Origin: Candidatus Tanganyikabacteria bacterium
Lineage (GTDB): Bacteria; Cyanobacteriota; Sericytochromatia; S15B-MN24; VGJW01
Length of the DNA stretch: 51,213 nt
NCBI GenBank assembly: GCA_016867235.1
Contig: VGJY01000009.1
Location: 1 to 51,213 of the forward strand
Direction: 5' to 3'
Part shown: positions 924-50,657 of the stretch, piece after piece
How the letters are laid out: every line of letters starts with the position of its first letter
Position numbering within the stretch: position 1 is the stretch's first letter
Notes under the pieces: generated by a model
Databases searched by the model: none
The model's input: only the letters and a program-made list of their open reading frames with translations
Told to the model about the DNA's origin: nothing
Program-made: the position numbers and the translations under genes

Positions 924-961
924 GCAAGCCCCTTGTACCGCGATTCTTGTTAAAGTGTGGC

Positions 962-2359
962 ATGCTGACCGCCCTCGGTTGTCTGGTCGTCTTCCTCGTC
1001 TTCGCCGCCCTGATGGCCACGGGGCGCCTGTCCGCCCTCCTCGCGCTTCCCGGCATGGCGCTGGCGATCGCCCTGGTGGCCCGCATCCCGGCCGCCGACG
1101 TGCTGGACACCGTGCTCAAGGGCGGCACGACGATGTTCGGCGAGGTCATGGTCACGACGATGATCGGCGCCGTGCTCGCGCAGGTGATGACGCGCTTCGG
1201 CATCGGGGCGCGCATCGTGCGCTGGGCGGCCGAGTTCAGCGGAGACAGCCCGTTCGTAGTCGGTTTCCTCCTGCTGGCGGTGACGGCGGTCCTGTTCTCG
1301 ACGATGGGCGGCCTGGGCGCCGTCATCATGGTGGGCTCGGTGGTCCTGCCCGTGATGATCTCGGCGGGGCTGCGGCCGGTCACGGCGGCCGGCGTGCTGG
1401 TCCTGGGCATCTCGCTGGGCGGGATGTTCAACCTCCAGAACTGGGTGTTCTTCCAGGAAGTGCTGCAGGTGCCGCAGGCGGAGATCCGCAACTTCGTGCT
1501 GATCTTCGGCCCCGTGTTCGCCCTGGTGGGGGCCCTCTACCTGTACTTCCAGCTCGAGAACGATCACCGCGTGAAGTCCCTCCCGTTGCTCGCGGGCGCC
1601 CTGGGCCTGGGCGCGGCCGGTATCGCGCTCTGGATGCTGCGCGACCGCCTCCCGGGCGTCTCGGTGTCGGCCTCGGCCCTCAAGGGGATGGCCGCGGCGG
1701 GCGCCCTGGCCCTGGCGGCTTCGTGGCTGCACCGGCGCGCCAACCCGGGCGAGGCCGTCCCCGGGTACGCGCTCCTGACGCCGATCATCCCGCTCGTGCT
1801 GGTAATGGCGTTCAATGTGCCGATCATCCCGGCGTTCCTCGTGGGCATCCTGCACGGCGTGCTCTCCACCTGGCGGCCGGGGCAGGTCAACGCCGCCACC
1901 CACGCCACGTTCGAGGGCATCTCTACGGTAGTGCCCGTGCTGGTGCTGCTGATGGGCATCGGCATGGTGGTCAAGGCGATGATGCACCCCGCGGTGGCCG
2001 AGGCGGTCAAGCCGTCGCTCACGCTGCTCATTCCCTCCCAGCCGATGATGTACGTGCTGGTCTTCGGCCTGCTGGCGCCGCTGTCGCTGTATCGCGGGCC
2101 GTTCAACCGCTTCGGCATGGGGAGCGGTTTCGCCGGCCTCATCCTGGGCACGCAGGCCCTGCCCAACCCCGCGGTCTTCGGCCTCTTCGAGTCGGTGGGG
2201 CAGATCCAGGGCGTCTGCGACCCGACCAACACGCACAACGTGTGGATTTCCAACTTCGTGGGCACCAGTCCCACCAAGCTCATGCTGCACACGCTGCCCT
2301 GGGCCTGGGGCGCGGCGATCGCGGGCCTGGTCATCTCCGCGGTGAGGTACCTCTCATGA
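962..2359 (+). CDS. Multi-pass permease of the GntP/CitM (ion transporter) type
   Basis: This 465-residue protein is almost entirely hydrophobic, with roughly 11-12 membrane segments. It resembles organic-anion symporters of the ion transporter superfamily: there are re-entrant Gly-rich stretches (GGLGAVIMVGSVVLP, LGISLGGMFN) and a second half repeating the pattern (PFNRFGMGSGFAGLI). The ATG at 962 is chosen; a TTG five codons upstream is possible but neither has a Shine-Dalgarno site. A TAAAGT at 951-956 could be a -10 box. Its stop overlaps the start of the hydantoinase gene (ATGA), so the two are translationally coupled and the substrate may be a hydantoin, 5-oxoproline or related cyclic amide. 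The substrate is inference; the permease character is clear. Confidence 0.75.
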   Translation: MLTALGCLVVFLVFAALMATGRLSALLALPGMALAIALVARIPAADVLDTVLKGGTTMFGEVMVTTMIGAVLAQVMTRFGIGARIVRWAAEFSGDSPFVVGFLLLAVTAVLFSTMGGLGAVIMVGSVVLPVMISAGLRPVTAAGVLVLGISLGGMFNLQNWVFFQEVLQVPQAEIRNFVLIFGPVFALVGALYLYFQLENDHRVKSLPLLAGALGLGAAGIALWMLRDRLPGVSVSASALKGMAAAGALALAASWLHRRANPGEAVPGYALLTPIIPLVLVMAFNVPIIPAFLVGILHGVLSTWRPGQVNAATHATFEGISTVVPVLVLLMGIGMVVKAMMHPAVAEAVKPSLTLLIPSQPMMYVLVFGLLAPLSLYRGPFNRFGMGSGFAGLILGTQALPNPAVFGLFESVGQIQGVCDPTNTHNVWISNFVGTSPTKLMLHTLPWAWGAAIAGLVISAVRYLS

Positions 2360-4668: not shown

Positions 4669-4712
4669 GCACGGCCGGCCGGGAACAAGATCCCCGGCAT
4701 GGCGATATCCGC

Positions 4713-4799
4713 TTTGCACGACGTGCTTCCAATTTACTGTTTTTGCAGAAAACTCATTGATTTTGCACGCGGACTGAGAAATCATTCTTGCACGGACTG
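4713..4799. promoter_or_regulatory. AT-rich island with repeated TTGCACG motifs upstream of fic
   Basis: The gap between the hydantoinase and the Fic gene is much richer in A/T than its surroundings. It carries four copies of a TTGCA-type word: TTTGCACG (4713-4720), TTTTGCAG (4741-4748), TTTTGCACG (4761-4769) and CTTGCACG (4787-4794). The first lies in a perfect palindrome, GCACG-A-CGTGC (4716-4726). The last two are followed by GGACTG. This looks like a cluster of operator sites for control of the fic gene, but the regulator is unknown. Confidence 0.4.
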
Positions 4800-4837
4800 C
4801 CCGGAGAAGTAGCGATTAGGCAGGAGAGGTTTCGAGA

Positions 4838-6340
4838 TTGCACAAGCTGGCGTCGTCGAAGGGTCGGCCGGTAGGCCAGGCGGCGCTGTGGTCCATGCTG
4901 GAACTGGCCGTGCCGCCTCCCATGGTTCAGAGCTTCATCGTGGCGGGGGCCAGGCGAGCGGTCCACGAGGGGCCGTACCGTATCGAGTACTTTCGGCCTT
5001 CCTACGAGCCGGACGCCACGCCGGTCGGCCACCTGGCCTTCGCTCTCAAGCATGAGCCACTCGATCTCCGGCTGCTCGCCGCGGCCTTCAAGGCCCTGGG
5101 TCCACAGGGCGTCCGGAACTGGATGCTGGCCGAGCCGACGGGCGCCCTCGCGCGCCGCGCTTGGTTCTTCTACGAGAGCCTGACCGGTGTGCACCTCGAT
5201 CTGCCACCGGCAAGTCGTGGCCGCTACGTGGAAGCCCTGGACCCCGAGAGGCACTTCACCGGAGACCGCAGGAACTCCCCCCGCCACCGGGTCATAGACA
5301 ACCTCCTCGGAGTGCCGTCGTACTGTCCCGTCGTGCGAAGAACCGAGCGGCTCGAGTCCCTCGTGGCCTCGAGAGTCGACAGAGACATCAAGTCTTTGCT
5401 GGCCTCGGTCGATCCCCGGGTCCTTCACCGTGCCATCCACTACCTGTACCGCAGGGAGACCAGGTCAACCTTCGCGATCGAAGGCGAATCGCCGTCGAGA
5501 GTCCGCTCCGCACGTTTCGTCGCCGCCTTGGAAGGGGTCCAGGATTTCGACCCGCTGTCGAAGGCGGACTTCGTCGCGTTGCAGAACGCCATCGTGGATC
5601 CTCGCTACGCCGAAAGCGACTGGCGAACGTCGCAGGTCTACGTCGGCCCGGCCGTCCTGGACCACAGGGAGAGAGTGGACTTCATCGGCCCGAAGCCCGC
5701 GGATGTTGCCGAGCTGATGGCCGGCTGGATGGAGATGACGGAGAGAATCCTGGCGAGCGATCTGGATCCGGTGGTTGCGGCGGCTCTCGTGTCATTCGGA
5801 TTCGTCCTGAACCATCCCTTCGAGGACGGCAACGGCCGGATCCACCGGTTCCTCGTGCACCACGTTCTGTGCCGTTCGGGATTCAGCCCGAAAGGCGCGG
5901 TGTTCCCGATTTCCGAAGCCATCCTTCGAGACGTTCCCGCATACTACCGGGCACTGGATACCTTTTCTGCGCCCGCCATGCGGCTCATCACCTGGCGAGC
6001 TGCCGGTGGCGGGGAAATTGAGGTTCTCAACGAAACCGCCGACCTCTATCGCCACTTCGACGCCACCCCGCTGGCCGAGTACCTTTACGACCGGGTAATC
6101 GACACGGTGCACCGCGACCTCAAGGAAGAGCTGGACTATCTTGCGCGGTACGACAAGGCACTCGGTGCCCTGGCGGGGTGCGTCGACATGCCCGACAAGC
6201 GGGCTTCGCTGTTCGTCCAGCTCGTGCTCCAGAGCCTCGAAGGTCGCATCTCGAAGGCAAAGCGCCCCCTGTTCAAGGAGCTGACGGAATCCGAAATCGC
6301 CAGTTGCGAGGACGCGATCGCCGAGGCTGTGAAGACCTGA
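4838..6340 (+). CDS. Fic-domain protein (AMP-transferase type) with inhibitory helix motif
   Basis: This 500-residue protein contains the Fic core HPFEDGNGRIHR (His326 catalytic, then the anion-binding loop). Fic enzymes transfer AMP or another nucleotide group to hydroxyl side chains of target proteins. The self-inhibition motif (S/T)xxxE(G/N) is present upstream as TFAIEG (Thr211 to Gly216), placing it among Fic proteins with an internal N-terminal inhibitory helix. About 170 residues follow the core. The TTG at 4838 is chosen because AGGAGAGG lies 8 nt before it; no ATG fits. No antitoxin-like small gene is adjacent. Composition is a little less GC-rich than the neighbours, which fits horizontal transfer. 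The target is unknown. Confidence 0.9.
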   Translation: MHKLASSKGRPVGQAALWSMLELAVPPPMVQSFIVAGARRAVHEGPYRIEYFRPSYEPDATPVGHLAFALKHEPLDLRLLAAAFKALGPQGVRNWMLAEPTGALARRAWFFYESLTGVHLDLPPASRGRYVEALDPERHFTGDRRNSPRHRVIDNLLGVPSYCPVVRRTERLESLVASRVDRDIKSLLASVDPRVLHRAIHYLYRRETRSTFAIEGESPSRVRSARFVAALEGVQDFDPLSKADFVALQNAIVDPRYAESDWRTSQVYVGPAVLDHRERVDFIGPKPADVAELMAGWMEMTERILASDLDPVVAAALVSFGFVLNHPFEDGNGRIHRFLVHHVLCRSGFSPKGAVFPISEAILRDVPAYYRALDTFSAPAMRLITWRAAGGGEIEVLNETADLYRHFDATPLAEYLYDRVIDTVHRDLKEELDYLARYDKALGALAGCVDMPDKRASLFVQLVLQSLEGRISKAKRPLFKELTESEIASCEDAIAEAVKT

Positions 6341-6360: not shown

Positions 6361-7062
6361 CTACCGGCGCGATGCCGACGTGAGTTCGGTCTCGATCAGC
6401 CAGCCTTCGATGCTGTAGTCGCTCTTGACCACGCCGACGCCCCTGGCGAGCCAGTAATAGCCGACCGCCGTGTAGGCCTGGTCGTGGGTGCCGATGACGT
6501 CCAGTTTCACGGTATCGAAGGTGCCGGCCGGCACGGTGACGCGCTCCTCCTTGATCACCTTGCCCATCCAGGCGCCGTCGTCCCAGCGAGAGCCGACCGC
6601 CAGGGGGAACCGCAGGAGCGGGATGGATAGCGAATCGATCGCCGTGGCCACCGGGCCCCAGTAGTCAACGCCCACGAGGTCGACGCCGGCCGGGGACGCG
6701 ATGAGCCGGGGGAAGCGGTAGCGGGTGGTGTACGAGTCGATCTCCCGCAGGTCGATCTCCACGCGTCCCGCTTCCTGCCGGGAGGCTTCCACCCGCACGG
6801 TGTGGGTGCCCGGGTAGTCGACGTAGGGATCGTCGGTGGGGTGCGCGACCGTCCGGTACTGCCAGGTATGGCCGACCTGCCCCGGGAAGTAGGATTGCCA
6901 GTCCCGGGCCGCAAGCCCGCCAGCCGAGGCGGCCCCGCCGGCGGGGGCGGTCCCGGGGACCTTGGCACCGCCGGGCGGCACGGCCGACCCCAACCGGGCC
7001 GCTGTGCCGCAGCCGACCACCAGCAAAGTAGCGGCGATACCCAGAGCGATCCGGCGAGCCAT
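6361..7062 (-). CDS. Lipoprotein of unknown function
   Basis: The 233-residue product begins with a lipoprotein signal (MARRIALGIAATLLVVGC, lipid-modified Cys at 18) followed by a Gly/Ala/Pro-rich linker to about residue 52. The rest is a compact domain with many aromatic and charged beta-type stretches (WQYRTVAHP, VRVEASRQE, GYYWLARGVGVVKSDYSIEGW). The C-terminal half (VPAGTFDTVKLDV...YYWLARGVGVVKSDYS) resembles small exported beta-rich proteins that follow a 'sensor-like' pattern, but I do not recognise a named family. The start has a strong Shine-Dalgarno site (AGGAGG, 8 nt upstream). A promoter and an 11-bp direct repeat lie just upstream. Confidence 0.7.
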   Translation of the reverse strand: MARRIALGIAATLLVVGCGTAARLGSAVPPGGAKVPGTAPAGGAASAGGLAARDWQSYFPGQVGHTWQYRTVAHPTDDPYVDYPGTHTVRVEASRQEAGRVEIDLREIDSYTTRYRFPRLIASPAGVDLVGVDYWGPVATAIDSLSIPLLRFPLAVGSRWDDGAWMGKVIKEERVTVPAGTFDTVKLDVIGTHDQAYTAVGYYWLARGVGVVKSDYSIEGWLIETELTSASRR

Positions 7063-8150: not shown

Positions 8151-9854
8151 TTAAAGCGCGCGCTGGAGGCCGGTCACGGGATCGGCGTTGTCGCAGGAGT
8201 TCCGGAAGGCCGCGGCCAGAGCCGCGGACTCCTCGTCAGACAGACCGTACAGGCGCCCGGCGATGGCATCGACCTCGGCAAGCGCGGCGGGATCGGGCGA
8301 GCCGCGCTGCAAGCTCGCGGTGGTCCGGGCAAGCGCGGCGACGTCGTCCTCGGGCAGCGCCGGGCACGGGACCTGCTCCAGGAAGGCGGGCAGGAAGTGG
8401 AAGTAGCCGCCGCCGATGCTGATGCCGCGAAAGAGCACGGCGTACAGCGCCGACAGGATGCGGGAATTGAGCAGGGCCGTCCACGCGGCCGTATGCGCCG
8501 CCGGGTCGGGGCAGTCCCGCGGGGCCAGGGCGATCGGGTAGACGTCCTTGGTCACGTACTCGCCATTTTCGTCCCAGTACGCCATCAGGCGCCGGGCGTG
8601 CTGGCAGATCACGATCTTCGGCTGGTCGAAGAGCCCTTCGGGCGGCAGCGGATTGCCAATCGCCGCCAGTTCCTCGGCGGCGTAGCGAATTCCGTAGCCG
8701 TCCCATTCCACGGCGAACGGCGCGATCTCCTTGCGGCGCATCCAGCTCTTCCCGCCCAGGTAGGGCCGCCGGCCCTCGCGGGCGCCGGGCGCGACGTAGC
8801 GCTCGCGCAGGCCCTTCTTGTGGAAGGAGACCGTGCTCCGGAACTGCAGGTGAGCGGCGAGCCGGGGCATCTCGCCGGTCAGCAGGCGAGACATGAGCGC
8901 GCCGAGCCTCGGATCGGGCGGGATGCAGAACGTCGCGGCCGCGCCGGTGGCCTCGAAGGCCCGCAGGTCCATCTCCGCCGCCGCGCCGTCGGGCCCGACG
9001 GTCGTGCAAACGCCCGTCCCGGGAGCCGCCAGGTGCAGGATGATCGGGTAGACGCCGGTGTTGCGGAAGATCGGCAGGTGGCTCAGGTCGCGAAGGGTAC
9101 GCGGCGGCCGGGCCGCGAGGAGGCGGCGCCGCAGGGACCGGGCGTACCGGTTCACCATGAACTTGTTCGGGATCACCATGCCGATGTCCCCGTCGGCCGA
9201 GATGTGCTCCAGGGCGAACTCCAGGAAACACACGTAGAGGTCGAAAGCGCCCTCCACCCGACCGGCGAAGCGGGAGCGCCACCGGCGCTTGTCGGCCTCT
9301 TCGGCTCTCTTGGCTTCCAGGTACGGCGGATTCCCCACGATCCAGCGGAATCTCTCCCCGGCCAGCAGGCCCGGTTCCAGGGCGTCGGCGGTCACTATCG
9401 CCGGCGCGGGCAGGGGCCCGCCGGTCGTCCGGCCGTCCCGGGCGAGGAGATCCCGGGCCAGCAACTCGAGGTGGAGGCGCGCGAGGTCGGCGATCTCGGG
9501 ACGGATCTCGATCCCGGCCAGGTCGGTCAGGATGCGCCTGGCACCTTCGTCCGGCTCCCGGCAGGCCGCCGCGATGCGGCCCGCCGCCCGCGCCAGGAGG
9601 GCGCCGGTCCCGCAGGCCGGATCGAGCAGGCGTCCGACTCGCCGGCCGTCGAAGCCGACATCGTCCAGGATCTGGTCCACCACGTTCGGCGGGGTGTAGA
9701 CCTGCCCGAATGCCCGCCGGTCGGCGTCGGGGAGCCGCTCCCAGGCTCCGAGGCAGCCTGCCGAGAACGTGGCCAGCGCCTCGGGAGCAGGGCGGTTGCC
9801 CAGGTAGCCGTCCCGGACCTCCCGGCCGAGCGCCAGCAGTTCCGCGGGTGTCAT
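8151..9854 (-). CDS. N6-adenine DNA methyltransferase, orphan, Eco57I/TaqI-like
   Basis: The 567-residue protein methylates adenine in DNA using S-adenosylmethionine. Motif X/I region: GQVYTPPNVVDQIL (about 50-62), then the SAM-binding DPACGTG (78-84); the catalytic NPPY is at 175-178. The C-terminal half (about 300-500) has the layout of a TaqI-type target-recognition domain (YLGGKSWMRRKEI, PKIVICQHARRLMAYWDENGEYVTKDVYPI). At 567 residues it is shorter than type IIG fusion enzymes and has no room for an N-terminal nuclease; no restriction gene is adjacent. So it is an orphan methyltransferase or the remnant of a restriction system. Its ATG directly follows the deacetylase stop, indicating co-transcription. 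Confidence 0.85.
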   Translation of the reverse strand: MTPAELLALGREVRDGYLGNRPAPEALATFSAGCLGAWERLPDADRRAFGQVYTPPNVVDQILDDVGFDGRRVGRLLDPACGTGALLARAAGRIAAACREPDEGARRILTDLAGIEIRPEIADLARLHLELLARDLLARDGRTTGGPLPAPAIVTADALEPGLLAGERFRWIVGNPPYLEAKRAEEADKRRWRSRFAGRVEGAFDLYVCFLEFALEHISADGDIGMVIPNKFMVNRYARSLRRRLLAARPPRTLRDLSHLPIFRNTGVYPIILHLAAPGTGVCTTVGPDGAAAEMDLRAFEATGAAATFCIPPDPRLGALMSRLLTGEMPRLAAHLQFRSTVSFHKKGLRERYVAPGAREGRRPYLGGKSWMRRKEIAPFAVEWDGYGIRYAAEELAAIGNPLPPEGLFDQPKIVICQHARRLMAYWDENGEYVTKDVYPIALAPRDCPDPAAHTAAWTALLNSRILSALYAVLFRGISIGGGYFHFLPAFLEQVPCPALPEDDVAALARTTASLQRGSPDPAALAEVDAIAGRLYGLSDEESAALAAAFRNSCDNADPVTGLQRAL

Positions 9855-14561: not shown

Positions 14562-14635
14562 CTCGGGGGGGCGGCACCCCCCCGAGGAGGCTCGAATGAA
14601 AGAGGCCCGGAGCGGGCAGGCGCCCGCCGGGCCTT
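14562..14635. terminator. Two GC-rich hairpins between convergent genes
   Basis: A perfect 10-bp stem (14562-14571 with 14577-14586; arm CTCGGGGGGG) has a 5-nt loop. A second hairpin spans 14604-14633 (GGCCCG...CGGGCC, with an inner GCGGGC/GCCCGC). On the minus strand the second is followed by TCTTTCATT, so it can end the gene at 14646-15002. On the plus strand the pair sits after the methyltransferase gene. Likely bidirectional. Confidence 0.6.
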
Positions 14636-18010: not shown

Positions 18011-18619
18011 GTGGGAGCGGCCGCGCCGCGGGACGCGGGGTCTCCCCCCGGGCCGCCGATCTGGGTGCTCGCCGGCCCATCCGGGAGCGGCAAGACCACG
18101 CTTGCCAACGCGCTCGTCGACCGGTCGGGGGGCCTGGTGCGCCGCGCCCGCACTTGCACCACGCGCGAGCCGCGGCCTGGCGAGGTATCGGGTGTCGACT
18201 ACACGTTCGTGAGCGCCGAGGAGTTCCAGCGCCTGGCCGATTCCGGCGCCCTGGTCGAGGAAACGACTTACGGCGGCAACCGCTACGGCGTGCCCGTCTC
18301 GGAGATTCCCCCCGATCGCGAGGTGCTCGTGGTCGTGGACCCTCCGGGCATCCGCCACCTGCGATCCCGCTTCGGCGGCGCTCGCGTGGTGGCCATCTGC
18401 CTGTCGGGCTACTCCGAGACCGACCTGGCCGCCCGCCTCGTCGGGCGCGGAGCCGATCCCGGCGAGATCGAGGCGCGGCTGCGCAACCTGGCGGCCGAGG
18501 CCGCGGCCCTGGACGGCGTCTGCGATTTCCGCGTCGCTCCGGGCGCCCCGGAAGACGTGCTGGGCGCCGTCGAGGAGCTCATGCGACGAGTGAGGGGGCG
18601 CTCGTCGCGCCCCCTCTGA
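18011..18619 (+). CDS. gmk: Guanylate kinase
   Basis: The 202-residue enzyme phosphorylates GMP to GDP with ATP. The P-loop GPSGSGKTT is at about 22-30. The GMP-binding segment TTREPRPGEVSGVDYTFVSAEEF is typical, and the later lid Arg-containing region is shorter than usual. The second half is more divergent: instead of the common 'VLDIDVQGA...' there is VLVVVDPPGIRHLRSRFG. The start is GTG at 18011, 4 nt after the protease stop. The last codons form a strong terminator hairpin. A related GMP-kinase-like function cannot be excluded because of the divergent C-terminal part. Confidence 0.8.
   Translation: MGAAAPRDAGSPPGPPIWVLAGPSGSGKTTLANALVDRSGGLVRRARTCTTREPRPGEVSGVDYTFVSAEEFQRLADSGALVEETTYGGNRYGVPVSEIPPDREVLVVVDPPGIRHLRSRFGGARVVAICLSGYSETDLAARLVGRGADPGEIEARLRNLAAEAAALDGVCDFRVAPGAPEDVLGAVEELMRRVRGRSSRPL
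18592..18616 (+). terminator. Hairpin embedded in the 3' end of gmk
   Basis: A perfect 10-bp stem (GAGGGGGCGC, 18592-18601, with 18607-18616) and 5-nt loop lie entirely in the last codons of gmk, ending 1 nt before its stop codon. No long T run follows. The EF-hand gene converges from the other side at 18646. Confidence 0.55.
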
Positions 18620-27431: not shown

Positions 27432-27509
27432 GGCCGCCCCGCGAAGCGGGGCGGCCGTGGGACGCTCCAGATGATGATTCAAGGTGGGCCACTTGCGGGC
27501 CCACCTTGA
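27432..27509 (-). terminator. Two strong hairpins downstream of the HU gene
   Basis: A 12-bp perfect stem (27479-27490 with 27498-27509; arm TCAAGGTGGGCC) and an 11-bp perfect stem (27432-27442 with 27446-27456; arm GGCCGCCCCGC, loop GAA) follow the HU gene on the minus strand. The second is followed by CTTCTGCTT. They also shield the upstream region of the lipoprotein gene at 25938-27332. Confidence 0.65.
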
Positions 27510-35729: not shown

Positions 35730-36214
35730 ACTGGCTGACGGATCCCGGCCTCTGGGCGGGCATCAACTTCGCGATCCTGGTCTTCCTGATCGTGAAGTTC
35801 GGCGGCAAGCCGATCGCCGCCATGTTCAAGGCGCGGGAAGAGGAGATCGCCCGCACGGTCGCGGCGGCCGAGAAGGCGCTCTCCGAGGCGCAGAAGACGC
35901 TCGACGAGGCCAAGCACATCGAAGGCCAGGAGCAGTCCATCCTCGACAACGTGGCCGCCGGCGCCCGGACGCTCGCGGCCAGCCTGGCCGAGGACATCGA
36001 CAAGGAGTCCAAGGCCGAGGCGGATCACCTCAAGGCGGCCGCCCGGGCCGAAATCGACCGCGACAAGCACGCGCTCCTGTCCGAGTTGCGTGCGGCCTTG
36101 CTCAAGGAAGCGTTCGCCGAGGCCGAGCGCCGCATCGCGGCGGCGCTCACGCCCGATCGCCACCGCGAGCTGTTCGACGCCTTCGCACGGAAGGCCGGGG
36201 AGGTCAGGCCATGA
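35726..36214 (+). CDS. atpF: ATP synthase F0 subunit b
   Basis: The 162-residue second b-type stator subunit has membrane helix WAGINFAILVFLIVKFGGKPIAAMF and a coiled-coil body (EEEIARTVAAAEKALSEAQKTLDEAK). It would pair with b' and bind the delta subunit. It starts within the b' stop (ATGA). Its own stop overlaps a 13-codon mini-ORF that bridges to atpH. Confidence 0.93.
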   Translation: MNWLTDPGLWAGINFAILVFLIVKFGGKPIAAMFKAREEEIARTVAAAEKALSEAQKTLDEAKHIEGQEQSILDNVAAGARTLAASLAEDIDKESKAEADHLKAAARAEIDRDKHALLSELRAALLKEAFAEAERRIAAALTPDRHRELFDAFARKAGEVRP

Positions 36215-36252
36215 GCACGCGCCGGGTATCACCCATGGGAGGTTCCTTGTGA
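36211..36252 (+). CDS. 13-residue bridging mini-ORF between atpF and atpH
   Basis: The frame reads MSTRRVSPMGGSL. Its ATG overlaps the atpF stop (ATGA), and its TGA overlaps the GTG of atpH (GTGA). A GGGAGG lies 7-12 nt upstream. Its middle contains the GGAGG that serves atpH. It could keep ribosomes moving from atpF to atpH by re-initiation. It may not make a functional peptide. Confidence 0.4.
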   Translation: MSTRRVSPMGGSL

Positions 36253-36788
36253 GCCAGATCGTCGCGGATCGTTACGCCGAGGCGCTGTTCCAGCTCGCCA
36301 CCGAGCTGGACCTGGTCGACAGGCTCGACCAGGAGCTCACGGTCATCGCGCAGACCCTGGCGGAAAACGCCGAGCTGCGCCTGCTCGTCGAGCACCCGCT
36401 GGTGGCCCGGGCTGACAAGAAGAGCGTGGCGGTGAAGCTGTTCGAGCGGCACGTCCACGAGCTGACCCTCAACTTCCTGCAGTTGCTGTTCGACAAGGGC
36501 CGCGGCGGCGCCCTCGAACTCATCCAGAGCCGCTACCACCACCTGGCGAGCAGGCTGCAGAAGCGGCTGGTCGTGCAGGTGACGACCGCCGTTCCGATTC
36601 CCAACGAGGACGTCGAGAAGTTCCGCGAGCGCCTCGAGAAGGCGTGGGATCGGCTCGTCGAAATCGAGCCCCACATCGATCCGGCCGTGCTGGGCGGCGC
36701 CCGCATGAAGGTCGAGGATCAGGTCGTGGACGGCAGCTTGAAGGGGGCGCTCGACAAGCTTCGCCAGGACATGATGCGTTCCGCGTAA
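36249..36788 (+). CDS. atpH: ATP synthase F1 subunit delta
   Basis: The 179-residue protein links F1 to the peripheral stalk. The N-terminal helical domain begins IVADRYAEALFQLATELDLVDRLDQELT, and the C-terminal signature is the family's IDPAVLGGARMKVEDQVVDGSLKGALDKLRQDM. The GTG start has GGAGG 7 nt upstream. The frame upstream of the GTG is open only by chance. Confidence 0.95.
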   Translation: MSQIVADRYAEALFQLATELDLVDRLDQELTVIAQTLAENAELRLLVEHPLVARADKKSVAVKLFERHVHELTLNFLQLLFDKGRGGALELIQSRYHHLASRLQKRLVVQVTTAVPIPNEDVEKFRERLEKAWDRLVEIEPHIDPAVLGGARMKVEDQVVDGSLKGALDKLRQDMMRSA

Positions 36789-36830
36789 AGTCGTAGAGAT
36801 AAGAAAGACCTTTAGAGGAGACCAAGAGAG

Positions 36831-38354
36831 ATGATCAGCATCCGCCCCGACGAGATTTCGGCGGTCATCAAGGAGCAGATCCAGAAGTACCAGGCCGAGC
36901 TGTCCGTCACGAACACGGGGACGGTGCTCGAGGTGGGCGACGGCATCGCCCGCGTCTACGGCTTGCAGAAGGCCATGGCCGGCGAGCTGGTCGATTTCGG
37001 CAACGACGTTTTCGGCATGGTGCTCGACCTGCTCGAGGATCACGTGGGCGTGGTCATCATGGGCGACTTCCGCAGGATCAAGGAGGGCGACACGGTCAAG
37101 ACGACCGGCCGCATCGCGTCGGTGCCCGTGGGCGAAGGCATGCTGGGCCGCGTGGTCAACGCCCTGGGCATGCCGATCGACGGCCGTGGCCCCATCGCCG
37201 GCGAGGACTTCTCGCGCATCGATCGCAAGGCGCCCGGCATCGTGGCCCGCAAGCCCGTGCACCAGCCGGTGCAGACGGGCCTGATGGGCATCGACTCGAT
37301 GATCCCCATCGGCCGCGGGCAGCGCGAGTTGATCATCGGCGATCGCCAGACGGGCAAGACGGCCATCGCCATCGACACGATCATCAACCAGAAGGGCAAG
37401 GACATGATCTGCGTCTACGTCGCGGTGGGCCAGAAGGCCTCCACCGTGGCGCGGGTCATCAAGGCCCTCGAGGATCACGGCGCGATGGACTACACGATCG
37501 TCGTCAACGCGGACGCCGACGAGGTCGCGCCGATGCAGTACATCGCGCCGATGTCCGGGTGCGCCATCGGCGAGTACTTCATGGAGCGCGGCAAGCACGT
37601 CCTGTGCGTGTACGACGACCTCACCAAGCAGGCCTGGGCGTACCGCGAGATGTCGCTGCTGCTGCGCCGCCCGCCGGGCCGCGAAGCTTACCCCGGCGAC
37701 GTGTTCTACCTCCACAGCCGCCTGCTGGAGCGGGCCGCCAAGTTCAACGACGAGAAGGGCGGCGGCTCCCTGACGGCGCTGCCCATCATCGAGACGCAGG
37801 CCGGCGACGTGTCGGCCTACATTCCGACCAACGTCATCTCCATCACCGACGGCCAGATCTTCCTCGAGACCGATCTGTTCAACGCCGGCATCCGCCCGGC
37901 GCTCAACGTCGGCATCTCGGTCTCCCGGGTCGGCGGCAACGCCCAGACCAAGGCGATGAAGAAGGTCGCCGGCAAGCTCCGGCTCGAGCTCGCGCAGTAC
38001 CGCGAGCTGGCCGCCTTCGCGCAGTTCGCCTCGGAGCTCGACAAGGCCACCCAGGCGCAGCTGGCACGCGGCCAGCGCCTCACCGAACTGCTCAAGCAGC
38101 CGCAGTACTCGCCGCTCAGCGTCGGCCAGCAGGTCACGCTCATCTGGGCGGCGACCAACGGCCTGATGGACGATGTCCCCGTCAACCAGATCACCCGCTT
38201 CAAGACGGAGCTCCTGGCCTACCTCAAGGCCAACAAGAGCGACCTGGTCGAGGGCATCACGGCCAAGGGGACCTTCGAGGAAGGCGACGCCAAGGGCATC
38301 GAGGAAGCGGTCAAGGCCTTCAAGAGCACGATGTTCTCTGGCGTGGGCCACTAG
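36831..38354 (+). CDS. atpA: ATP synthase F1 subunit alpha
   Basis: The 507-residue protein is a complete alpha subunit. It has the non-catalytic nucleotide site with P-loop GDRQTGKT (170-177), the segments [37 protein letters not shown] and [33 protein letters not shown], and the alpha C-terminal helical domain. GAGGAGACC stands before the ATG. A 42-bp gap separates it from atpH, the largest within the core F1 genes. Confidence 0.98.
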
Positions 38355-38372
38355 GGGCGCGGCAGGCCGAAG

Positions 38373-40761
<2,389 letters not shown>

Positions 40762-40765
40762 TCTC

Positions 40766-41182
40766 ATGCCAATCACGCTCGAAATCATCACCCCGGATCG
40801 CGTGGTCATGCGCGAGCCCGTGGACTTCGTACAGGCGCGGGGCGAAGAAGGGGAGCTGGGCATCCTGCCCGGCCACACCCCCTTCTTCACCTCGCTCGCG
40901 ACCGATCTGCTGCTGGTCCGCAGGGGCCAGGACGAGGAGATCGTGGCCGTGATGGGCGGCTTCATGGAAGTCCGCCCCGATCACGTCACGGTGCTGTCCC
41001 CCGCCGCCGAGCGCGCCGCGGAGATCGACGAGTTGCGGGCGAAGGAAGCCGAGGGGCGCGCCAAGGTCGTGGTCGACCGCGAGCGCACGGCCGAGGCGGA
41101 GGCCGCCCTGTCCCGCGCCCTGGTCCGTCTACGGGCCATCGAGCTGGTCGGGCTCTCCAGGAAGCTCAGGAAGCAGGGCTAG
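40766..41182 (+). CDS. atpC: ATP synthase F1 subunit epsilon
   Basis: The 138-residue protein has the N-terminal beta-sandwich (LEIITPDRVVMREPVDFVQARGEEGELGILPGHTPFFTSL, VMGGFMEVRPDHVTVL) and a C-terminal two-helix domain (ERAAEIDELRAKEAEGRAKVVVDRERTAEAEAALSRALVRLRAIEL), the part that can act as a brake on ATP hydrolysis. It closes the ATP synthase cluster. Its stop shares CTAG with the stop of the convergent regulator gene. Confidence 0.95.
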   Translation: MPITLEIITPDRVVMREPVDFVQARGEEGELGILPGHTPFFTSLATDLLLVRRGQDEEIVAVMGGFMEVRPDHVTVLSPAAERAAEIDELRAKEAEGRAKVVVDRERTAEAEAALSRALVRLRAIELVGLSRKLRKQG

Positions 41183-41898
41183 CCCAGCTTGGCGGCCGGC
41201 GCGGCCTCCCCGAGTTCCAGCCGGTAGCCCACGCGCGGCACGTTGACCAGGAAGCGGGGCCGGGTCGGATCCGGCTCGACCTTCTGGCGCAGGTGGCGCA
41301 CGTGGGTGCGCACGACCTCGGGGTTGCCGCGGCGCGGCGGGTAGCCCAGGGCCTCCACGAGCAGCTCTTCCGTCGTGGACGGCCGTCCAGGCCGGCGCAC
41401 GAGGTACTCCAGGATCGCCGTCTCGCGCGGGGTGAGCGGATCGCGTCGCATGTCTTCCAGCAAGACATGGTGGGCGTCGAAATCCAGGACCCTGTCCCCC
41501 AGTTCGAGGCGGCGGACGCCCGCCTGCCGCGTCGCGCGGCGGAGGTGGGCGCGAACGCGGAGCAGGTACTCGCGCTCGTCCATCGGCAGGGGCAGTACGT
41601 CGCTGGCGCCGGCCTCGAAGGCTTCGTAGACGTCCACGGGCGTCGCGCCGCACGCCGCCACGAGGGCGCCGAGATGGCGGTAGCGCCGGTCGGCGCGGAG
41701 GCGGGCCACGGCACCGCGGCCGTCGGGACCCGCGATCTCGACTATCGCCAGCGCGTACAGCCGCGGATCCGCGAGGGCCGTCTCGGTTTCCCCTCCCAGG
41801 CGAGCCGCCACGTACGGGACTCCCGCCGCCGCGAGGACATCGGCCGAATAGGATGTCCAGGCGTCCGGAGACGTGATGATCAGGACACGGTTTTGCAT
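41179..41898 (-). CDS. OmpR/PhoB-type regulator with degenerate receiver (Glu in place of Asp)
   Basis: The 239-residue protein has a receiver-like N-terminal domain (1-120) and a winged helix (about 130-230: PLTPRETAILEYLVRRPGRPSTTEELLVEALGYPP, VRTHVRHLRQKVEPDPTRPRFLVNVPRVGYRLE). At the phospho-acceptor site the sequence is LAIVEIAGPDGRG, with Glu where Asp is expected; the N-terminal acidic pocket is also missing (IITSPDAW). It may therefore act without phosphorylation. GGAGGGAG precedes the ATG at 41898. It is paralogous to the divergent gene at 42064: the winged helices share GYPPR-GNPE-VRTHVR-LRQK. The two flank a 20-bp palindrome. Confidence 0.85.
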   Translation of the reverse strand: MQNRVLIITSPDAWTSYSADVLAAAGVPYVAARLGGETETALADPRLYALAIVEIAGPDGRGAVARLRADRRYRHLGALVAACGATPVDVYEAFEAGASDVLPLPMDEREYLLRVRAHLRRATRQAGVRRLELGDRVLDFDAHHVLLEDMRRDPLTPRETAILEYLVRRPGRPSTTEELLVEALGYPPRRGNPEVVRTHVRHLRQKVEPDPTRPRFLVNVPRVGYRLELGEAAPAAKLG

Positions 41899-41953
41899 AT
41901 CCCCAACTCTCCCTCCTCGGAGTTCCCACCCTAGCGATGGAACACCTTGATCG

Positions 41954-41973
41954 GCACCGGCGCGCGCCGGTGC
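41954..41973. promoter_or_regulatory. Perfect 20-bp palindrome between two divergent regulators
   Basis: The half-site GCACCGGCGC is followed directly by its reverse complement. It lies 55 bp before the minus-strand regulator gene and 90 bp before the plus-strand one. It is flanked by ACACC and GGTGT. It may be a shared operator or a cruciform; as a hairpin it lacks a loop of normal size unless the centre opens. Confidence 0.5.
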
Positions 41974-42063
41974 TTGGTGTGAAGAACGCGTGGTGAATAT
42001 CGGGTTCCCGTGAAGGCCACGCGAGCGCATGCTCGGTGAGAGGGTCGAAAGGAGGGGGTGGAG

Positions 42064-42774
42064 ATGGTCAAGCACGTCCTGGTGGTCGAGGAGGATCCGC
42101 GCGAGCGGCGATTGCTCGAGTTCTTCCTGACGCGTGCCGAATTCGAGGTCGAAGTCGTGGCGGAGGCTGGCGCCGCGATCATGGCGATGCGCGCGCGGCC
42201 GGCCGCCGCCGCGATCGTCTCCTTTGGCGAGCAGGCTTGCGGAATCGAGCTCTGCCGCGCGCTGCTCGACGCGAGGAGCGGTGGACCGGAAGTGCCGGTG
42301 ATCGTGATCGGCGGTCCGGAGGCCTCGCCGGAGGAACGTTGCCGCTGCTTCGAGTGTGGCGTCTGGGACTTCATGCCCAGGCCGGTCGATCACGAGGAGC
42401 TGGTTTGGCGGCTGCGGGCGCACCTGCAGGGGGCGATGGCGGCGAGCCCGGCTCGCGACGTCGTGCAGGCGGGCGGAATGCAGCTCGATACGCGCAACCA
42501 CACCGTTTCCCTGGGCGGAGACCCGGTGATGTTGACACCCAACGAGTGCGCGATACTCCACAAGTTGCTGGAAGCGCCGGGTCGGGCGTTCGACGTCGAG
42601 ACGCTGCTGGTCGACGCTCTGGGGTACCCGCCGCGCCTCGGCAACCCCGAGATCGTGCGCACCCACGTGCGGAACCTCAGGCAGAAGCTCGAAGACGACC
42701 CGCGAGAGCCGAAATTGATCGTCAACCTGCCGCGTATCGGCTACGCGGTTCGCATCCAGGACACGGCCGTGTGA
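42064..42774 (+). CDS. OmpR/PhoB-type regulator with degenerate receiver
   Basis: The 236-residue paralogue of the gene at 41179-41898 has a receiver-like N-terminal part and a C-terminal winged helix (MLTPNECAILHKLLEAPGRAFDVETLLVDALGYPPRLGNPEIVRTHVRNLRQKLEDDPREPKLIVNLPRIGYAVRI). The acidic pocket EED (residues 9-11) is retained. The phospho-acceptor region reads AAIVSFGEQACGIELCR, so the Asp is lost (Val or Ser). The ATG at 42064 is used because AGGAGG lies 8 nt upstream; a GTG 6 nt earlier is possible. Phosphorylation-independent control is likely for both regulators. Confidence 0.85.
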   Translation: MVKHVLVVEEDPRERRLLEFFLTRAEFEVEVVAEAGAAIMAMRARPAAAAIVSFGEQACGIELCRALLDARSGGPEVPVIVIGGPEASPEERCRCFECGVWDFMPRPVDHEELVWRLRAHLQGAMAASPARDVVQAGGMQLDTRNHTVSLGGDPVMLTPNECAILHKLLEAPGRAFDVETLLVDALGYPPRLGNPEIVRTHVRNLRQKLEDDPREPKLIVNLPRIGYAVRIQDTAV

Positions 42775-42870
42775 TCGTCACGCAATCTTGGGCGAAGCGC
42801 GCCTATGGAGGCAAAGCGGACGAGCGGTAGGTTCGTCATCGTGGACGTGCCCCCAAGGGAGGGACTGCGA

Positions 42871-43683
42871 GTGGCGAGTCGGACCCAGCCTTTGACGGTA
42901 ACCATCGTCAGAACCGGACGGCGCCAGGCCGGACCGCTCACCTTGCCTGTGGAACTTCGGGGGGACGATGCGGCGCGACCGACCGGCAAATCGTCGTCGG
43001 TCCGCCGGATTTCAGGCCTCGGGTCACTCCTGGGGCAAGCCCAGGGTACCGTTGTGGGTGGGTCACTCCTGGGGCAAGCCCAGGGTTCCGTTTCCCGGGC
43101 CCGGGTCTGGGAGATCGGGGCCGGCGGCCTGCTGGCCGGTCTGGCCGGTAGCTTGCTGGCAGGGGCATTGCCGCTCCCCGATCCGCTCACGTCCGGTCCC
43201 GCAGGAATAGCCCGCGCGTTGCTCTGGCTGGGCGGAGCCGGAGGCCTCGTGGGCGCCTGCATCGGCGGCCTGGTCGGGGCGGCCCACGCTGGGCGAATCC
43301 CCGTCGTGGCTGCCCGCGGCCTGATCGCCGCCGCCTGGGGCCTGTGGGTCGGCGCCCTCGGCGCGATTGCCATCACCCTGGCCGCACACCGGCTGTGGAG
43401 TGCCCTCGATCTCTCCGGCCCCGTGGCCTCCCTGCCCCCTGGGCCGCTGGCGATGGGTCCCGTGGCCTGGGTAGCGGCGATCGCGCTGTGGGCCGGCCTG
43501 CTGGGCCTGCTCCTCCCCTTCGCGCCCGGCCGGCCGGGCGGGCGACCGGCTGTCGCCGGCGCCTGCGGGGGCGCCGCGGGCATCGTGGGCGGCGCCGTGG
43601 CCGCTTTCACGGGCCTGGTCGCGCCGGCGGCCCTGCTGGTCGGGGCGGCGATCGCCCTGGCGGGCGCCCGGGAGCAGGAATGA
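42871..43683 (+). CDS. Membrane protein with in-frame repeat-derived peptide
   Basis: The 270-residue product has a cytoplasmic N-terminal part and about 6-7 membrane segments rich in Gly/Ala/Leu (GAGGLLAGLAGSLLAGALPLP, ALLWLGGAGGLVGACIGGLVGAA, GLIAAAWGLWVGALGAIAITLAA). Just before the first helix the peptide GSLLGQAQG occurs twice, 13 residues apart, encoded by two tandem copies of the dispersed palindromic repeat. I do not recognise the family. GTG at 42871 is chosen for its AAGGGAGGG; an in-frame ATG at 42805 would add 22 residues but has no Shine-Dalgarno site. It is coupled by ATGA to the next gene. Confidence 0.65.
   Translation: MASRTQPLTVTIVRTGRRQAGPLTLPVELRGDDAARPTGKSSSVRRISGLGSLLGQAQGTVVGGSLLGQAQGSVSRARVWEIGAGGLLAGLAGSLLAGALPLPDPLTSGPAGIARALLWLGGAGGLVGACIGGLVGAAHAGRIPVVAARGLIAAAWGLWVGALGAIAITLAAHRLWSALDLSGPVASLPPGPLAMGPVAWVAAIALWAGLLGLLLPFAPGRPGGRPAVAGACGGAAGIVGGAVAAFTGLVAPAALLVGAAIALAGAREQE
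43021..43085. repeat. Dispersed palindromic repeat, two tandem copies inside a gene
   Basis: Copies of 26 bp begin at 43021 and 43060, spaced exactly 39 bp (13 codons) apart. Each reads GGGTCACTCC, then TGGGGCAAGCCCAGGG, the reverse complement of the unit at 15147 with CCTGGG arms. They keep the reading frame of the host gene open. Confidence 0.75.
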
Positions 43684-47941: not shown

Positions 47942-49600
47942 CTATGATCGTGGCGCGGGTTGGGGGTTGCTCGGGTGGGTCGCCCCCGGGTCGAGCCCGG
48001 GGTTCTGTCGAGAACAAAGCGTGACCCGGTTGCGGCCGTTATGCTTGGAATCGTACAGCGCAGCGTCCGCCGCGGCAACCAGGAGTTCCGGGTCGCCGGC
48101 ATGGTGCGGGAAGACCGCGACGCCGATCGAGATGGTGACCGCAAGGAGCTGCCCGTCGGGGCCGGGCACGGCGTGGCTCTCCACCGCGCGGCGGATGCGC
48201 TCGGCCACGCGCATCGCCTCGTCGATGTCGGTCTCGGGCAGGATGGCCGCCATCTCCTCGCCGCCATAACGGGCCGCGACGTCGATATCGTCCCGGACGT
48301 TGCGGGCGAAGAGCTGAGCGACGCTGCGGAGCACCTGGTCGCCCGTCTGGTGGCCGTACGTGTCGTTGAAGGTCTTGAACTTGTCGATGTCGACCAGCAG
48401 GAGGGATAAAGGCAGCGCCGCCTGCCCTGCCCGCGCCAGCTCGTCCGCCAGCTTCATGTCGAAGTGGCGGCGGATGAACAGGCGCGTGAGGCCGTCGACC
48501 GTCGCCTGCTCGTAGAGGCGGGCGTTCTCGATCGACGCCCCGGCCGTGACGGCCATCGACATCAGGGAGTCCTTGTCGTCCTCGGTGAACGCGCCGATGC
48601 CGCGCCGTTCTTCGCGGTCGAAGACGCAAAGCACGCCCACCACCGGCATCTCGGCGGGATCGAATTCGTCGTTGAGGGGGCCCGTGCGGCCACCCTGCCG
48701 CCGCACCAGCAGCGGCACGGCCAGGCAGGAGTAGCACTCGACCTCGGCCGGGATCTCGGCGAGCGCGTCGAGCACCATGCCGGTCTTGCCCAGGATGACG
48801 GGTTCGAGCCAGCTTCGGGAAGCCGGGAAACGCATCCCGATCTCCCACTCCTTGAAGGCGAAGTTGAACGCCTCGTTGAGCTCCAGTTCGTCATGGGCGG
48901 CGTCGTAGGTGAAGAGGATGCCGCGGCGGGCGTTGACCAGGCTGACCGCCTCGCTGACCAGGATCCGGTGGATGGTGCCGGCGCGCAGCGACCCGTGGAT
49001 CTTGAGGCCGATTTGCTGGAACTGGTGCAACTCGGTGCGGGCGCGGGCCTGCTCGGTGCGCTGGGCGCGCGAGTGAAGGGCGACGGCTATCTGCCTGCCC
49101 ATCACCGAGAGGATGTTGAGCTCCAGCGGCGAGTAGGGCAGCAGGTCGCGCTTGGGGCCCAGGAGCGCCAGGCCGTAGACCTTGCCGCGGACGGCGAGCG
49201 GCACCCAGAATTCGGTCGGGAAGGCCGCGAGCGCGGTGCGGTTGTCCGCCATGAATAGGCGGTTGGCGTCGAAGCCCGGCTGGTCGGCCGGCCCGAACGG
49301 GAAGGCATCCTCCATGGCCCAGAACCGCTCGGTGACCTCGGTCAAGGTGAGGATCGGCCCGCGATCGGGGGCGTTGTCCGAGATCAGCAGTTCCATGCGC
49401 CGCGAGTCGCCCTTGAGCGTGAAGACCGAACCGCCTTCGGCGCCGATGTCCCGGACGATGCGCCCGAGAATCGGCCGCAGCACCAGCTTGAGGTTGGGGG
49501 CGGTCGAGACGTCGGCCGCCAGTTCGCCCAGATCGGACAGCGTTCCTATCAGGCGCTCGAGCGTCGTGAAGCCCGGCCCGAGCGGAGCGGTCTTGGCCAT
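47942..49600 (-). CDS. Diguanylate cyclase with two GAF-like domains
   Basis: The 552-residue protein has two GAF-like sensor domains (about 30-195 and 205-365) and a C-terminal GGDEF domain that makes c-di-GMP from GTP. The active-site loop is GGEEM (in ARYGGEEMAAILPET), acceptable for a catalytic GG(D/E)EF. The inhibitory I-site RxxD, normally just before, reads DDID, so product inhibition is probably lost. The last ~20 residues (NPGLDPGATHPSNP) are encoded by a copy of the dispersed palindromic repeat. Its ATG overlaps the STAS gene stop by 1 nt (TGATG), so it belongs to the STAS/anti-sigma operon. Confidence 0.9.
   Translation of the reverse strand: MAKTAPLGPGFTTLERLIGTLSDLGELAADVSTAPNLKLVLRPILGRIVRDIGAEGGSVFTLKGDSRRMELLISDNAPDRGPILTLTEVTERFWAMEDAFPFGPADQPGFDANRLFMADNRTALAAFPTEFWVPLAVRGKVYGLALLGPKRDLLPYSPLELNILSVMGRQIAVALHSRAQRTEQARARTELHQFQQIGLKIHGSLRAGTIHRILVSEAVSLVNARRGILFTYDAAHDELELNEAFNFAFKEWEIGMRFPASRSWLEPVILGKTGMVLDALAEIPAEVECYSCLAVPLLVRRQGGRTGPLNDEFDPAEMPVVGVLCVFDREERRGIGAFTEDDKDSLMSMAVTAGASIENARLYEQATVDGLTRLFIRRHFDMKLADELARAGQAALPLSLLLVDIDKFKTFNDTYGHQTGDQVLRSVAQLFARNVRDDIDVAARYGGEEMAAILPETDIDEAMRVAERIRRAVESHAVPGPDGQLLAVTISIGVAVFPHHAGDPELLVAAADAALYDSKHNGRNRVTLCSRQNPGLDPGATHPSNPQPAPRS
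47976..48005. repeat. Dispersed palindromic repeat, copy in the 3' end of the cyclase gene
   Basis: GGGTCGC, CCCGGG, TCGAG, CCCGGG and GTTC follow in order, the reverse orientation of the unit at 15147. The repeat encodes part of the protein's tail. Confidence 0.65.
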
Positions 49601-49950
49601 CAGGCGGAAAGCGCGGCGAGCGCCGCCTCTTCGGTCTCTTCGATGCCGGCGAACTGGGCGAGACCCATGATGGTGAAGGTCTTGGCGATCACCTTGGTGA
49701 GGTTGCAGAAGAAGATCTTGCCGTCGTGCTCCTGGATGCGTTCGATCAGTTCGATCAGGATGGACACGCCGATCGAATTGACGACCGTGGATTTCTCCAT
49801 GTTGATCACGAAGTGGCGCACGCCCTCGTCGAGCAACGACCGGGCCGTCTCGCCGATCTTCTCGCCGCCCAGGTTGTTGACGTAGCCGTCGGTGTAGATG
49901 ACGGCGAAACCGGGCCCCTTTCGGACCGTGACCGCCAACTCGCTATTCAC
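49600..49950 (-). CDS. STAS domain anti-sigma-factor antagonist
   Basis: The 116-residue single-domain protein (SpoIIAA/RsbV type) carries the phospho-acceptor region VVNSIGVSILIELIERIQEHDGKIFFCNLTKVIAKTFTIMGL; the Ser in NSIG is the likely phosphorylation site. When not phosphorylated, such proteins bind the anti-sigma factor and free the sigma factor. GTG at 49950 overlaps the end of the upstream kinase gene by 8 nt and has GGGAG upstream. The stop overlaps the cyclase ATG by 1 nt. Confidence 0.9.
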   Translation of the reverse strand: MNSELAVTVRKGPGFAVIYTDGYVNNLGGEKIGETARSLLDEGVRHFVINMEKSTVVNSIGVSILIELIERIQEHDGKIFFCNLTKVIAKTFTIMGLAQFAGIEETEEAALAALSA

Positions 49951-50341
49951 TTCTGCTCCCTCTAGCCTTGACCATGGTGATGGTGGTGCCGCCCGGTCCG
50001 GACTGGATGTCCACTTCGTCCATCAGGCCGCGCATGATCTTGACCCCGTTTCCGCGCCAGCCGGGGCTCTTGGTCATGTTGTCCGGATCGAAGCCCTGAC
50101 CGAAGTCCTGGATCACCACCTTGAGGTCGCCGGGGTTCATCACGAACTTGATGTACACCTTGCCCTCGGAGCTGCGGGAATGCTCGAAAGCGTTTATGCA
50201 GGCCTCGATCAACGCGATCTTGACGGCGTCTATCTCTTCGCTGTCGAACTCCATGAACTGCGCAACGGCTTCGGCCGTCTGCGTGGCCGCAATCTCCATG
50301 TTGGGGATCATCGGGATGGTCAGGTTGATTTCCCTGGGCAT
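49943..50341 (-). CDS. Anti-sigma factor / serine kinase of the RsbW type (HATPase)
   Basis: The 132-residue protein is a small GHKL ATPase. It has the N-box EACINAFEHS, the G1 box DFGQGFDP and the G2 box GNGVKIMRGLMDEV, as in RsbW/SpoIIAB, which bind a sigma factor and phosphorylate a STAS antagonist. It is the first gene of the operon with STAS and cyclase. The ATG at 50341 is chosen (AGGTG upstream). The most obvious partner in the window is the sigma factor at 29344-30105. This link is inference. Confidence 0.9.
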   Translation of the reverse strand: MPREINLTIPMIPNMEIAATQTAEAVAQFMEFDSEEIDAVKIALIEACINAFEHSRSSEGKVYIKFVMNPGDLKVVIQDFGQGFDPDNMTKSPGWRGNGVKIMRGLMDEVDIQSGPGGTTITMVKARGSRSE

Positions 50342-50657
50342 CGCACCTGCATCCCTGGGCTGTGGATCCACGACACCGCCTTCCGGGGCCTATGTGGCCG
50401 CAATTCTAAGACATTCGCGAGTGGCGGGTCAAACCGCTGAGCAAAGGCTAGCGCGGGCGTGCGGCCCGGTCTGTGCGACCTGCACCCGCCATCTTCACGC
50501 ATGTCCGGCTACGGACGGGGGTATACAATGTGTGCTGGCTGCCGGCGGCGCGCGGAAGGGGATCCGAGCGACGCCTCGCCACCCCGGGCTTGACCCGGGA
50601 GTGACGCACACAACGGAGGCTTCGGGCAGCCGTCGAAAAACGGGAGGGATCCACGCC
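50342..50657 (+). other. 316-bp intergenic region between divergent genes
   Basis: No credible gene is present. It contains a TATACAAT octamer (50522-50529), likely a -10 box for the plus-strand gene, with no good -35. The dispersed palindromic repeat lies at 50579-50608, inside the presumed leader. GGGAGGG for the next start ends near 50647. The rest, next to the anti-sigma gene, should hold its promoter but none stands out. Confidence 0.45.
50579..50608. repeat. Dispersed palindromic repeat, copy in the leader of the gene at 50658
   Basis: CCCCGGG-CTTGA-CCCGGG followed by AGTGACGCA matches the unit at 15147-15177. Confidence 0.75.

What the first reader, a model, noticed from the sequence alone, without database searches (positions are those of the whole stretch)
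41179..42774. Divergent paralogous regulators with broken receivers around a perfect 20-bp palindrome
Both proteins have normal PhoB-type winged helices but have lost the phospho-acceptor Asp (Glu in one, Val/Ser in the other). Glu can mimic phospho-Asp. The shared intergenic palindrome (half-site GCACCGGCGC) is a natural operator for a two-gene switch directly after the ATP synthase cluster. No histidine kinase gene is present.
Basis: partly seen in the sequence, partly recalled or inferred. Interest (0 to 1): 0.65.

Follow-up and report, generated by a model that had tools for sequence, protein, structure and literature searches.

The report
Kinase-less regulator pair beside ATP synthase
Two back-to-back genes encode DNA-binding regulators whose phosphorylation switch has been lost; the gene pair is conserved near the ATP-synthase genes in related bacteria but the palindrome between them is not, so this is a new example of a known kind of regulator rather than a demonstrated new switch.

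Summary
Gene A (41179-41898, minus) and gene B (42064-42774, plus) are divergent OmpR/PhoB-type regulators. Both receivers lack the phospho-acceptor (E54 in A, V52/S53 in B), and a perfect 20-bp palindrome (41954-41973) lies between them. Of 22 OmpR-type proteins tabulated from this genome, only these two lack the Asp. The divergent pair lies near the ATP-synthase genes in three genera of the family, and a gene-A remnant lies there in a fourth; no pair follows atpC in six other families sampled.

All orthologues are pseudo-receivers, with different residues lost per lineage. In genus g3, A keeps Asp and Lys but not the acidic pair or Thr. Purifying selection acts on both g3 receivers (omega 0.22-0.25; atpG 0.18), so they are not decaying.

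The two-gene switch is not supported: the palindrome is absent between the orthologues although the predicted recognition helix is nearly unchanged in g3, and it has no second genomic copy within 2 mismatches. A Glu mimic is unlikely with A's active site otherwise gone.

Best reading: orphan, phosphorylation-independent OmpR-type regulators (ALR/pseudo-receiver kind) with unknown targets; the palindrome is an unexplained lineage-specific element.

The parts
41179..41898 (-). Gene A: OmpR/PhoB-type regulator, 239 aa, pseudo-receiver (E54 at the Asp site; T9-S10, A82, L104) plus winged helix; tail-to-tail with atpC
42064..42774 (+). Gene B: OmpR/PhoB-type regulator, 236 aa, pseudo-receiver (V52/S53 at the Asp site; E9-E10 kept, G83, R106) plus winged helix; AAAGGAGG about 8 nt upstream of the ATG
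41899..42063 (.). 165-bp divergent intergenic region; no sigma-70-like promoter match and no terminator-like site in it (the one terminator-like hit, 42102-42118, is inside gene B)
41954..41973 (.). Perfect 20-bp palindrome GCACCGGCGCGCGCCGGTGC; unique in the genome within 2 mismatches; not conserved between orthologous genes
40766..41182 (+). atpC (ATP synthase epsilon subunit), last gene of the atp operon; its 3' end overlaps the 3' end of gene A by 4 bases (context, not part of the pair)

Best explanation
Genes A and B are a divergently transcribed pair of orphan OmpR/PhoB-type transcription factors with pseudo-receiver domains, from a duplication that predates the split of genera g1 and g3. 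The receivers no longer use His-Asp phosphotransfer but keep the (beta-alpha)5 fold, most likely as constitutive or protein/ligand-controlled dimerisation modules. Activity would then be set by expression level, partner binding or a ligand, and the proteins probably bind DNA as homodimers and possibly as a heterodimer. Shown: gene structure, residue losses, predicted fold, conserved pair in the family, purifying selection on both receivers in g3. Inferred: phosphorylation-independence, dimerisation, auto- or cross-regulation from the shared intergenic region, and any link to ATP-synthase or neighbouring genes. The palindrome is treated as a lineage-specific element (other operator, leader hairpin or chance), not as the operator of the conserved pair.
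For: The active-site quintet is incomplete in every pair member that has a receiver: g1, g3 (two species), g4. Of 22 OmpR-type proteins tabulated from the window genome only A and B lack Asp. The nearest intact paralogues (C57, C19, C131, C10) each have a histidine-kinase ATPase within about 1 kb, the pair has none. The divergent pair lies by the atp genes in g1, g3 and g4, with the H+-PPase further on in g1, G008 and g4; no pair follows atpC in sampled members of f2-f7. Tree: A_win with g3 A 95/97, B_win with g3 B 84/92. omega: A 0.217, B 0.207; receivers 0.245 and 0.217; atpG 0.179. Both models show five beta-alpha units plus winged helix; the top PDB matches of A are RpaA, MtrA and KdpE, with the ALR RitR also listed. 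Glu (26%) and Ser (15%) are common substitutes in ALRs (PMC4395418).
Against: No expression, binding or dimerisation data. g3 gene A keeps Asp and Lys, so weak phosphorylation is not excluded there. omega could be computed only in g3; no congener of the window genome is held. Only four genera carry the locus, the g4 sequences are very divergent (long branches), and in G009 the atp block is inverted relative to the pair. The structure models rest on 10-row alignments; pTM 0.65 for A and 0.79 for B.
Confidence: 0.7

Rival explanations
1. One reading: the palindrome is the operator of both proteins, which form a self- or mutually regulating two-gene switch, with Glu in A as a phospho-Asp mimic.
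For: The palindrome sits between the two start codons and is unlikely by chance in that one intergenic region (0.03%). The predicted recognition helices of A and B are nearly identical (PEVVRTHVRHLRQKV and PEIVRTHVRNLRQKL), so both could read the same sequence. An atypical OmpR-type regulator, HP1043, binds inverted repeats (PMC3960148).
Against: The g3 pairs keep nearly the same recognition helix (PEVVRTHIRHLRQKL or PEIVRTHIRHLRQKL in A, PEIVRTHVRNLRQKL in B) but have no such palindrome or half-site above chance. No second copy in the genome. Most of the family binds direct repeats. A lacks the rest of the active site needed to read a Glu mimic.
Confidence: 0.15
2. The palindrome belongs to something else: the operator of another dimeric regulator, a hairpin in the 5' leader of gene A, or a chance GC-rich palindrome. 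(This can be true together with the best explanation.)
For: Not conserved with the pair. As RNA on the gene A strand the stretch folds better than shuffles (z -2.87). At 69% GC about 0.2 such palindromes per window are expected, so a couple of dozen over 6.1 Mb by extrapolation.
Against: Its intergenic position and perfect symmetry; no T-run, so not an intrinsic terminator; unique in the genome within 2 mismatches, which argues against a widespread regulon.
Confidence: 0.6
3. The pair is in decay: the receivers are relics of a former two-component system on the way to loss.
For: In g2 gene A is reduced to a winged-helix ORF beside atpC, followed by unrelated DNA with no gene B on the contig. 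Different residues are lost in different lineages.
Against: Full-length open frames with coding-like GC3 (0.88 and 0.86), and omega about 0.22-0.25 on the receivers in g3.
Confidence: 0.12

Closest known systems
Aspartate-less receiver (ALR) / pseudo-receiver OmpR-type regulators such as ChxR, HP1043 and RitR (PMC3960148, PMC8345958, PMC4395418, PMC12632262)
   Same: Receiver fold plus OmpR/PhoB winged helix, phospho-Asp replaced by a common substitute, no adjacent kinase gene found
   Different: Here two paralogues are encoded divergently; DNA site, dimer state and signal unknown; low identity (18% between A and RitR in the fold match)
BldM-WhiI of Streptomyces (PMC4125116)
   Same: Two orphan atypical response regulators that cooperate; the BldM homodimer site is palindromic
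   Different: Homology of A and B to BldM or WhiI was not tested; a heterodimer of A and B is only a possibility
CmrR/CmrT of Clostridioides difficile (PMC12548384)
   Same: Two OmpR-family response regulators encoded by one atypical signal transduction system (from the abstract)
   Different: Read only as an abstract; encoded by cmrRST; not compared here by sequence

Membership tests
OmpR/PhoB response-regulator family | C-terminal winged helix (Trans_reg_C, PF00486) | tested here: met
   62.6 and 63.0 bits against cut-off 26.2
OmpR/PhoB response-regulator family | N-terminal (beta-alpha)5 receiver | tested here: met
   B above the Pfam cut-off (36.4 against 30.2); A only by alignment and structure prediction
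Canonical (phosphorylated) response regulator | Conserved D, DD, T/S and K active site | tested here: not met
   A: E54, TS, A82, L104; B: V52/S53, EE, G83, R106
Canonical two-component system | Cognate histidine kinase gene nearby | tested here: not met
   One search finds only the RsbW-like site on contig C9 (the whole window). An unlinked kinase cannot be excluded
Aspartate-less receiver / pseudo-receiver regulators | Recognisable receiver lacking the phospho-acceptor Asp or other key catalytic residues | tested here: met
   definition from PMC4395418 and PMC12632262
Aspartate-less receiver / pseudo-receiver regulators | Activity independent of Asp phosphorylation | not testable with these tools
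   needs biochemistry
HP1043-like inverted-repeat binders | Binds an inverted-repeat operator | tested here: inconclusive
   A perfect palindrome is present but is not conserved between orthologous genes; binding not tested

The most novel reading that the evidence does not exclude
The pair of pseudo-receiver paralogues works as an obligate heterodimer that senses an energy-related signal and controls the nearby ATP-synthase or H+-PPase genes, each lineage changing its operator and its catalytic residues while the receivers stay under selection.
Probability: 0.08. Interest if true: 0.7.

Novelty: new member of a known kind. Interest (0 to 1): 0.33.

Why it matters
How pseudo-receivers are switched on and off is an open question (PMC12632262). 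Two paralogues kept together at one locus, with catalytic residues lost differently in each lineage yet both receivers under purifying selection in g3, make a natural comparison set for asking what a receiver does once phosphorylation is gone. The location by the ATP synthase and H+-PPase genes suggests, but does not show, a link to energy metabolism.

Tried and rejected
Direct repeats with 10-12 bp spacing in the intergenic regions of the window, g3 and g4 do not exceed shuffles. Local alignment of the window intergenic region with those of g3 finds no convincing shared motif (best score reached by 5.6% and 37% of shuffles). A terminator reading of the palindrome was rejected for lack of a T-run. 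The decay reading was weakened by omega in g3. A first translation of gene A was out of frame and was replaced. I first took the pair to follow atpC directly in all relatives; one search corrected this for g3.

Full report
Observation. Gene A (239 aa) ends tail-to-tail on atpC; gene B (236 aa) starts at an ATG with AAAGGAGG about 8 nt upstream. The intergenic region is 165 bp; the palindrome lies 55 nt from the A start codon and 90 nt from the B start codon. It is the only perfect palindrome of 20 bp or more in the 51-kb window (0.2 expected), and 0.03% of simulated intergenic regions of this size hold one. For this one region it is more than chance; among the thousands of intergenic regions of a genome such a palindrome is not extraordinary.

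Receivers. In an alignment of 48 OmpR-type proteins from the class and this genome, A has Glu and B has Val (next residue Ser) at the phospho-acceptor. Alignments with MtrA and RpaA agree. In the models, E54 of A and S53 of B are the last residues of strand beta-3. A has also lost the acidic pair, the Thr and the Lys; B keeps an acidic pair (EE) but not Thr or Lys. Of 22 receiver-bearing OmpR-type proteins tabulated from this genome (20 plus A and B) only A and B lack the Asp; C262, C8 and C1 keep it but depart at other positions.

Conservation. In g4 (G010, L045) the pair abuts atpC as in the window, with the H+-PPase beyond it. In g3 (G008, L031) the atp genes, the divergent pair, the HD protein and the H+-PPase follow in the window's order, but about 0.7 kb separates atpC from gene A. 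In the second g3 genome (G009, L032) the pair and the end of the HD gene are collinear with G008, but the atpH-atpD block beside them is inverted and atpC is not on the contig; whether this is a real inversion or an assembly error I cannot tell. In g2 (G007, L066) only a winged-helix remnant of A is left beside atpC, followed by unrelated DNA. In the sampled members of families f2-f7 no pair follows atpC, as far as the contigs reach. The tree joins A with A (95/97) and B with B (84/92) across g1 and g3, so the duplication predates that split; the g4 members have long branches and are identified by position only. g3 A has VVLDLD at the Asp site and keeps Lys, but has Ser-Arg for the acidic pair and Gly for Thr; g3 B has Gly at the Asp site. 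The pseudo-receiver state is thus shared, with different residues lost in different lineages.

Selection. Between the two g3 species omega is 0.217 for A and 0.207 for B; for the receivers alone 0.245 and 0.217; for atpG 0.179. In g3 the receivers are being kept. No congener of the window genome is held, so the same test could not be made for the window's own genes.

Palindrome. It has no second copy within 2 mismatches in its genome, none within 1 mismatch in 17 other genomes of the class, and no counterpart above chance between the orthologous genes of g3 and g4. The predicted recognition helix, by contrast, is nearly unchanged between g1 and g3 and is much the same in the intact paralogue C57 (PEILRTHVRNLRQKL). 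A conserved reading head with a non-conserved palindrome argues against this palindrome as the operator of the conserved system, though turnover of sites cannot be excluded. Most OmpR/PhoB regulators bind direct repeats, HP1043 being an exception (PMC3960148); direct repeats in these regions do not exceed shuffles either. A hairpin in the gene A leader is possible (z -2.87).

Kinase. The window has no histidine kinase; the HATPase at 49946-50371 is RsbW-like and sits beside a STAS protein and a GAF-GGDEF protein. The nearest intact paralogues (C57, C19, C131, C10) each have a kinase ATPase within about 1 kb. An unlinked kinase cannot be ruled out, least of all for g3 gene A.

Placement. Pseudo-receivers are several percent of receiver domains (PMC12632262), and ALRs make up 2% of receiver-OmpR/PhoB architectures, with Glu, Asn, Ser, Gly and Ala the commonest substitutes (PMC4395418). 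ChxR carries a Glu at this site, and replacing it by Asp or Ala did not abolish its constitutive DNA binding in vitro (PMC4395418). The pair is therefore a new member of a known kind. What seems less usual is that two paralogous pseudo-receivers are kept back-to-back at one locus over several genera; I did not survey how common that is.

Verdict. Observation confirmed; the switch and operator interpretation only partly supported.

Noticed in passing
window 47942-50371 (-): GAF-GGDEF protein, STAS protein and RsbW-like HATPase in a row beyond the H+-PPase; homologues in the same order in G008 (L031).
   Followed up: partly
L032 (G009:C110) 1-4040: The atpH-atpD block is inverted relative to the regulator pair when compared with G008; real inversion or assembly error.
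   Followed up: partly
L066 (G007:C338) 3556-6036: In genus g2 gene A is reduced to a winged-helix ORF beside atpC and followed by unrelated DNA; no gene B on that contig.
   Followed up: partly
L031 about 6611-7040 and L032 4037-4465: Stretch between atpC and gene A in G008, conserved at 77% in G009 and apparently holding a small ORF (MNSGITRLPAS...), not present in the window.
   Followed up: no
L031 about 8398-8560 and L032 5522-5650: g3 gene B has a Pro/Ala-rich N-terminal extension before the receiver that the window's gene B lacks, if the upstream GTG start is right.
   Followed up: no
L043 6385-7083 (G006) and L044 5191-5892 (G002): Two further Asp-less OmpR-type regulators (Gly and Ala at the Asp site) in a separate clade with G004_C96, G005_C17 and G000_C262.
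   Followed up: no
window 42805-43680: 292-aa protein 30 bp after gene B with no Pfam match; no homologue seen at this place in G008.
   Followed up: no
window 27479-27509, 27432-27456, 18592-18616, 14562-14586: Other strong inverted repeats with 10-12 bp arms, not examined.
   Followed up: no
window 36204-39755 (-): 1183-aa open frame antisense to the atp genes; similar antisense frames in g3 and g4, probably a by-product of high GC3 in the sense genes.
   Followed up: no
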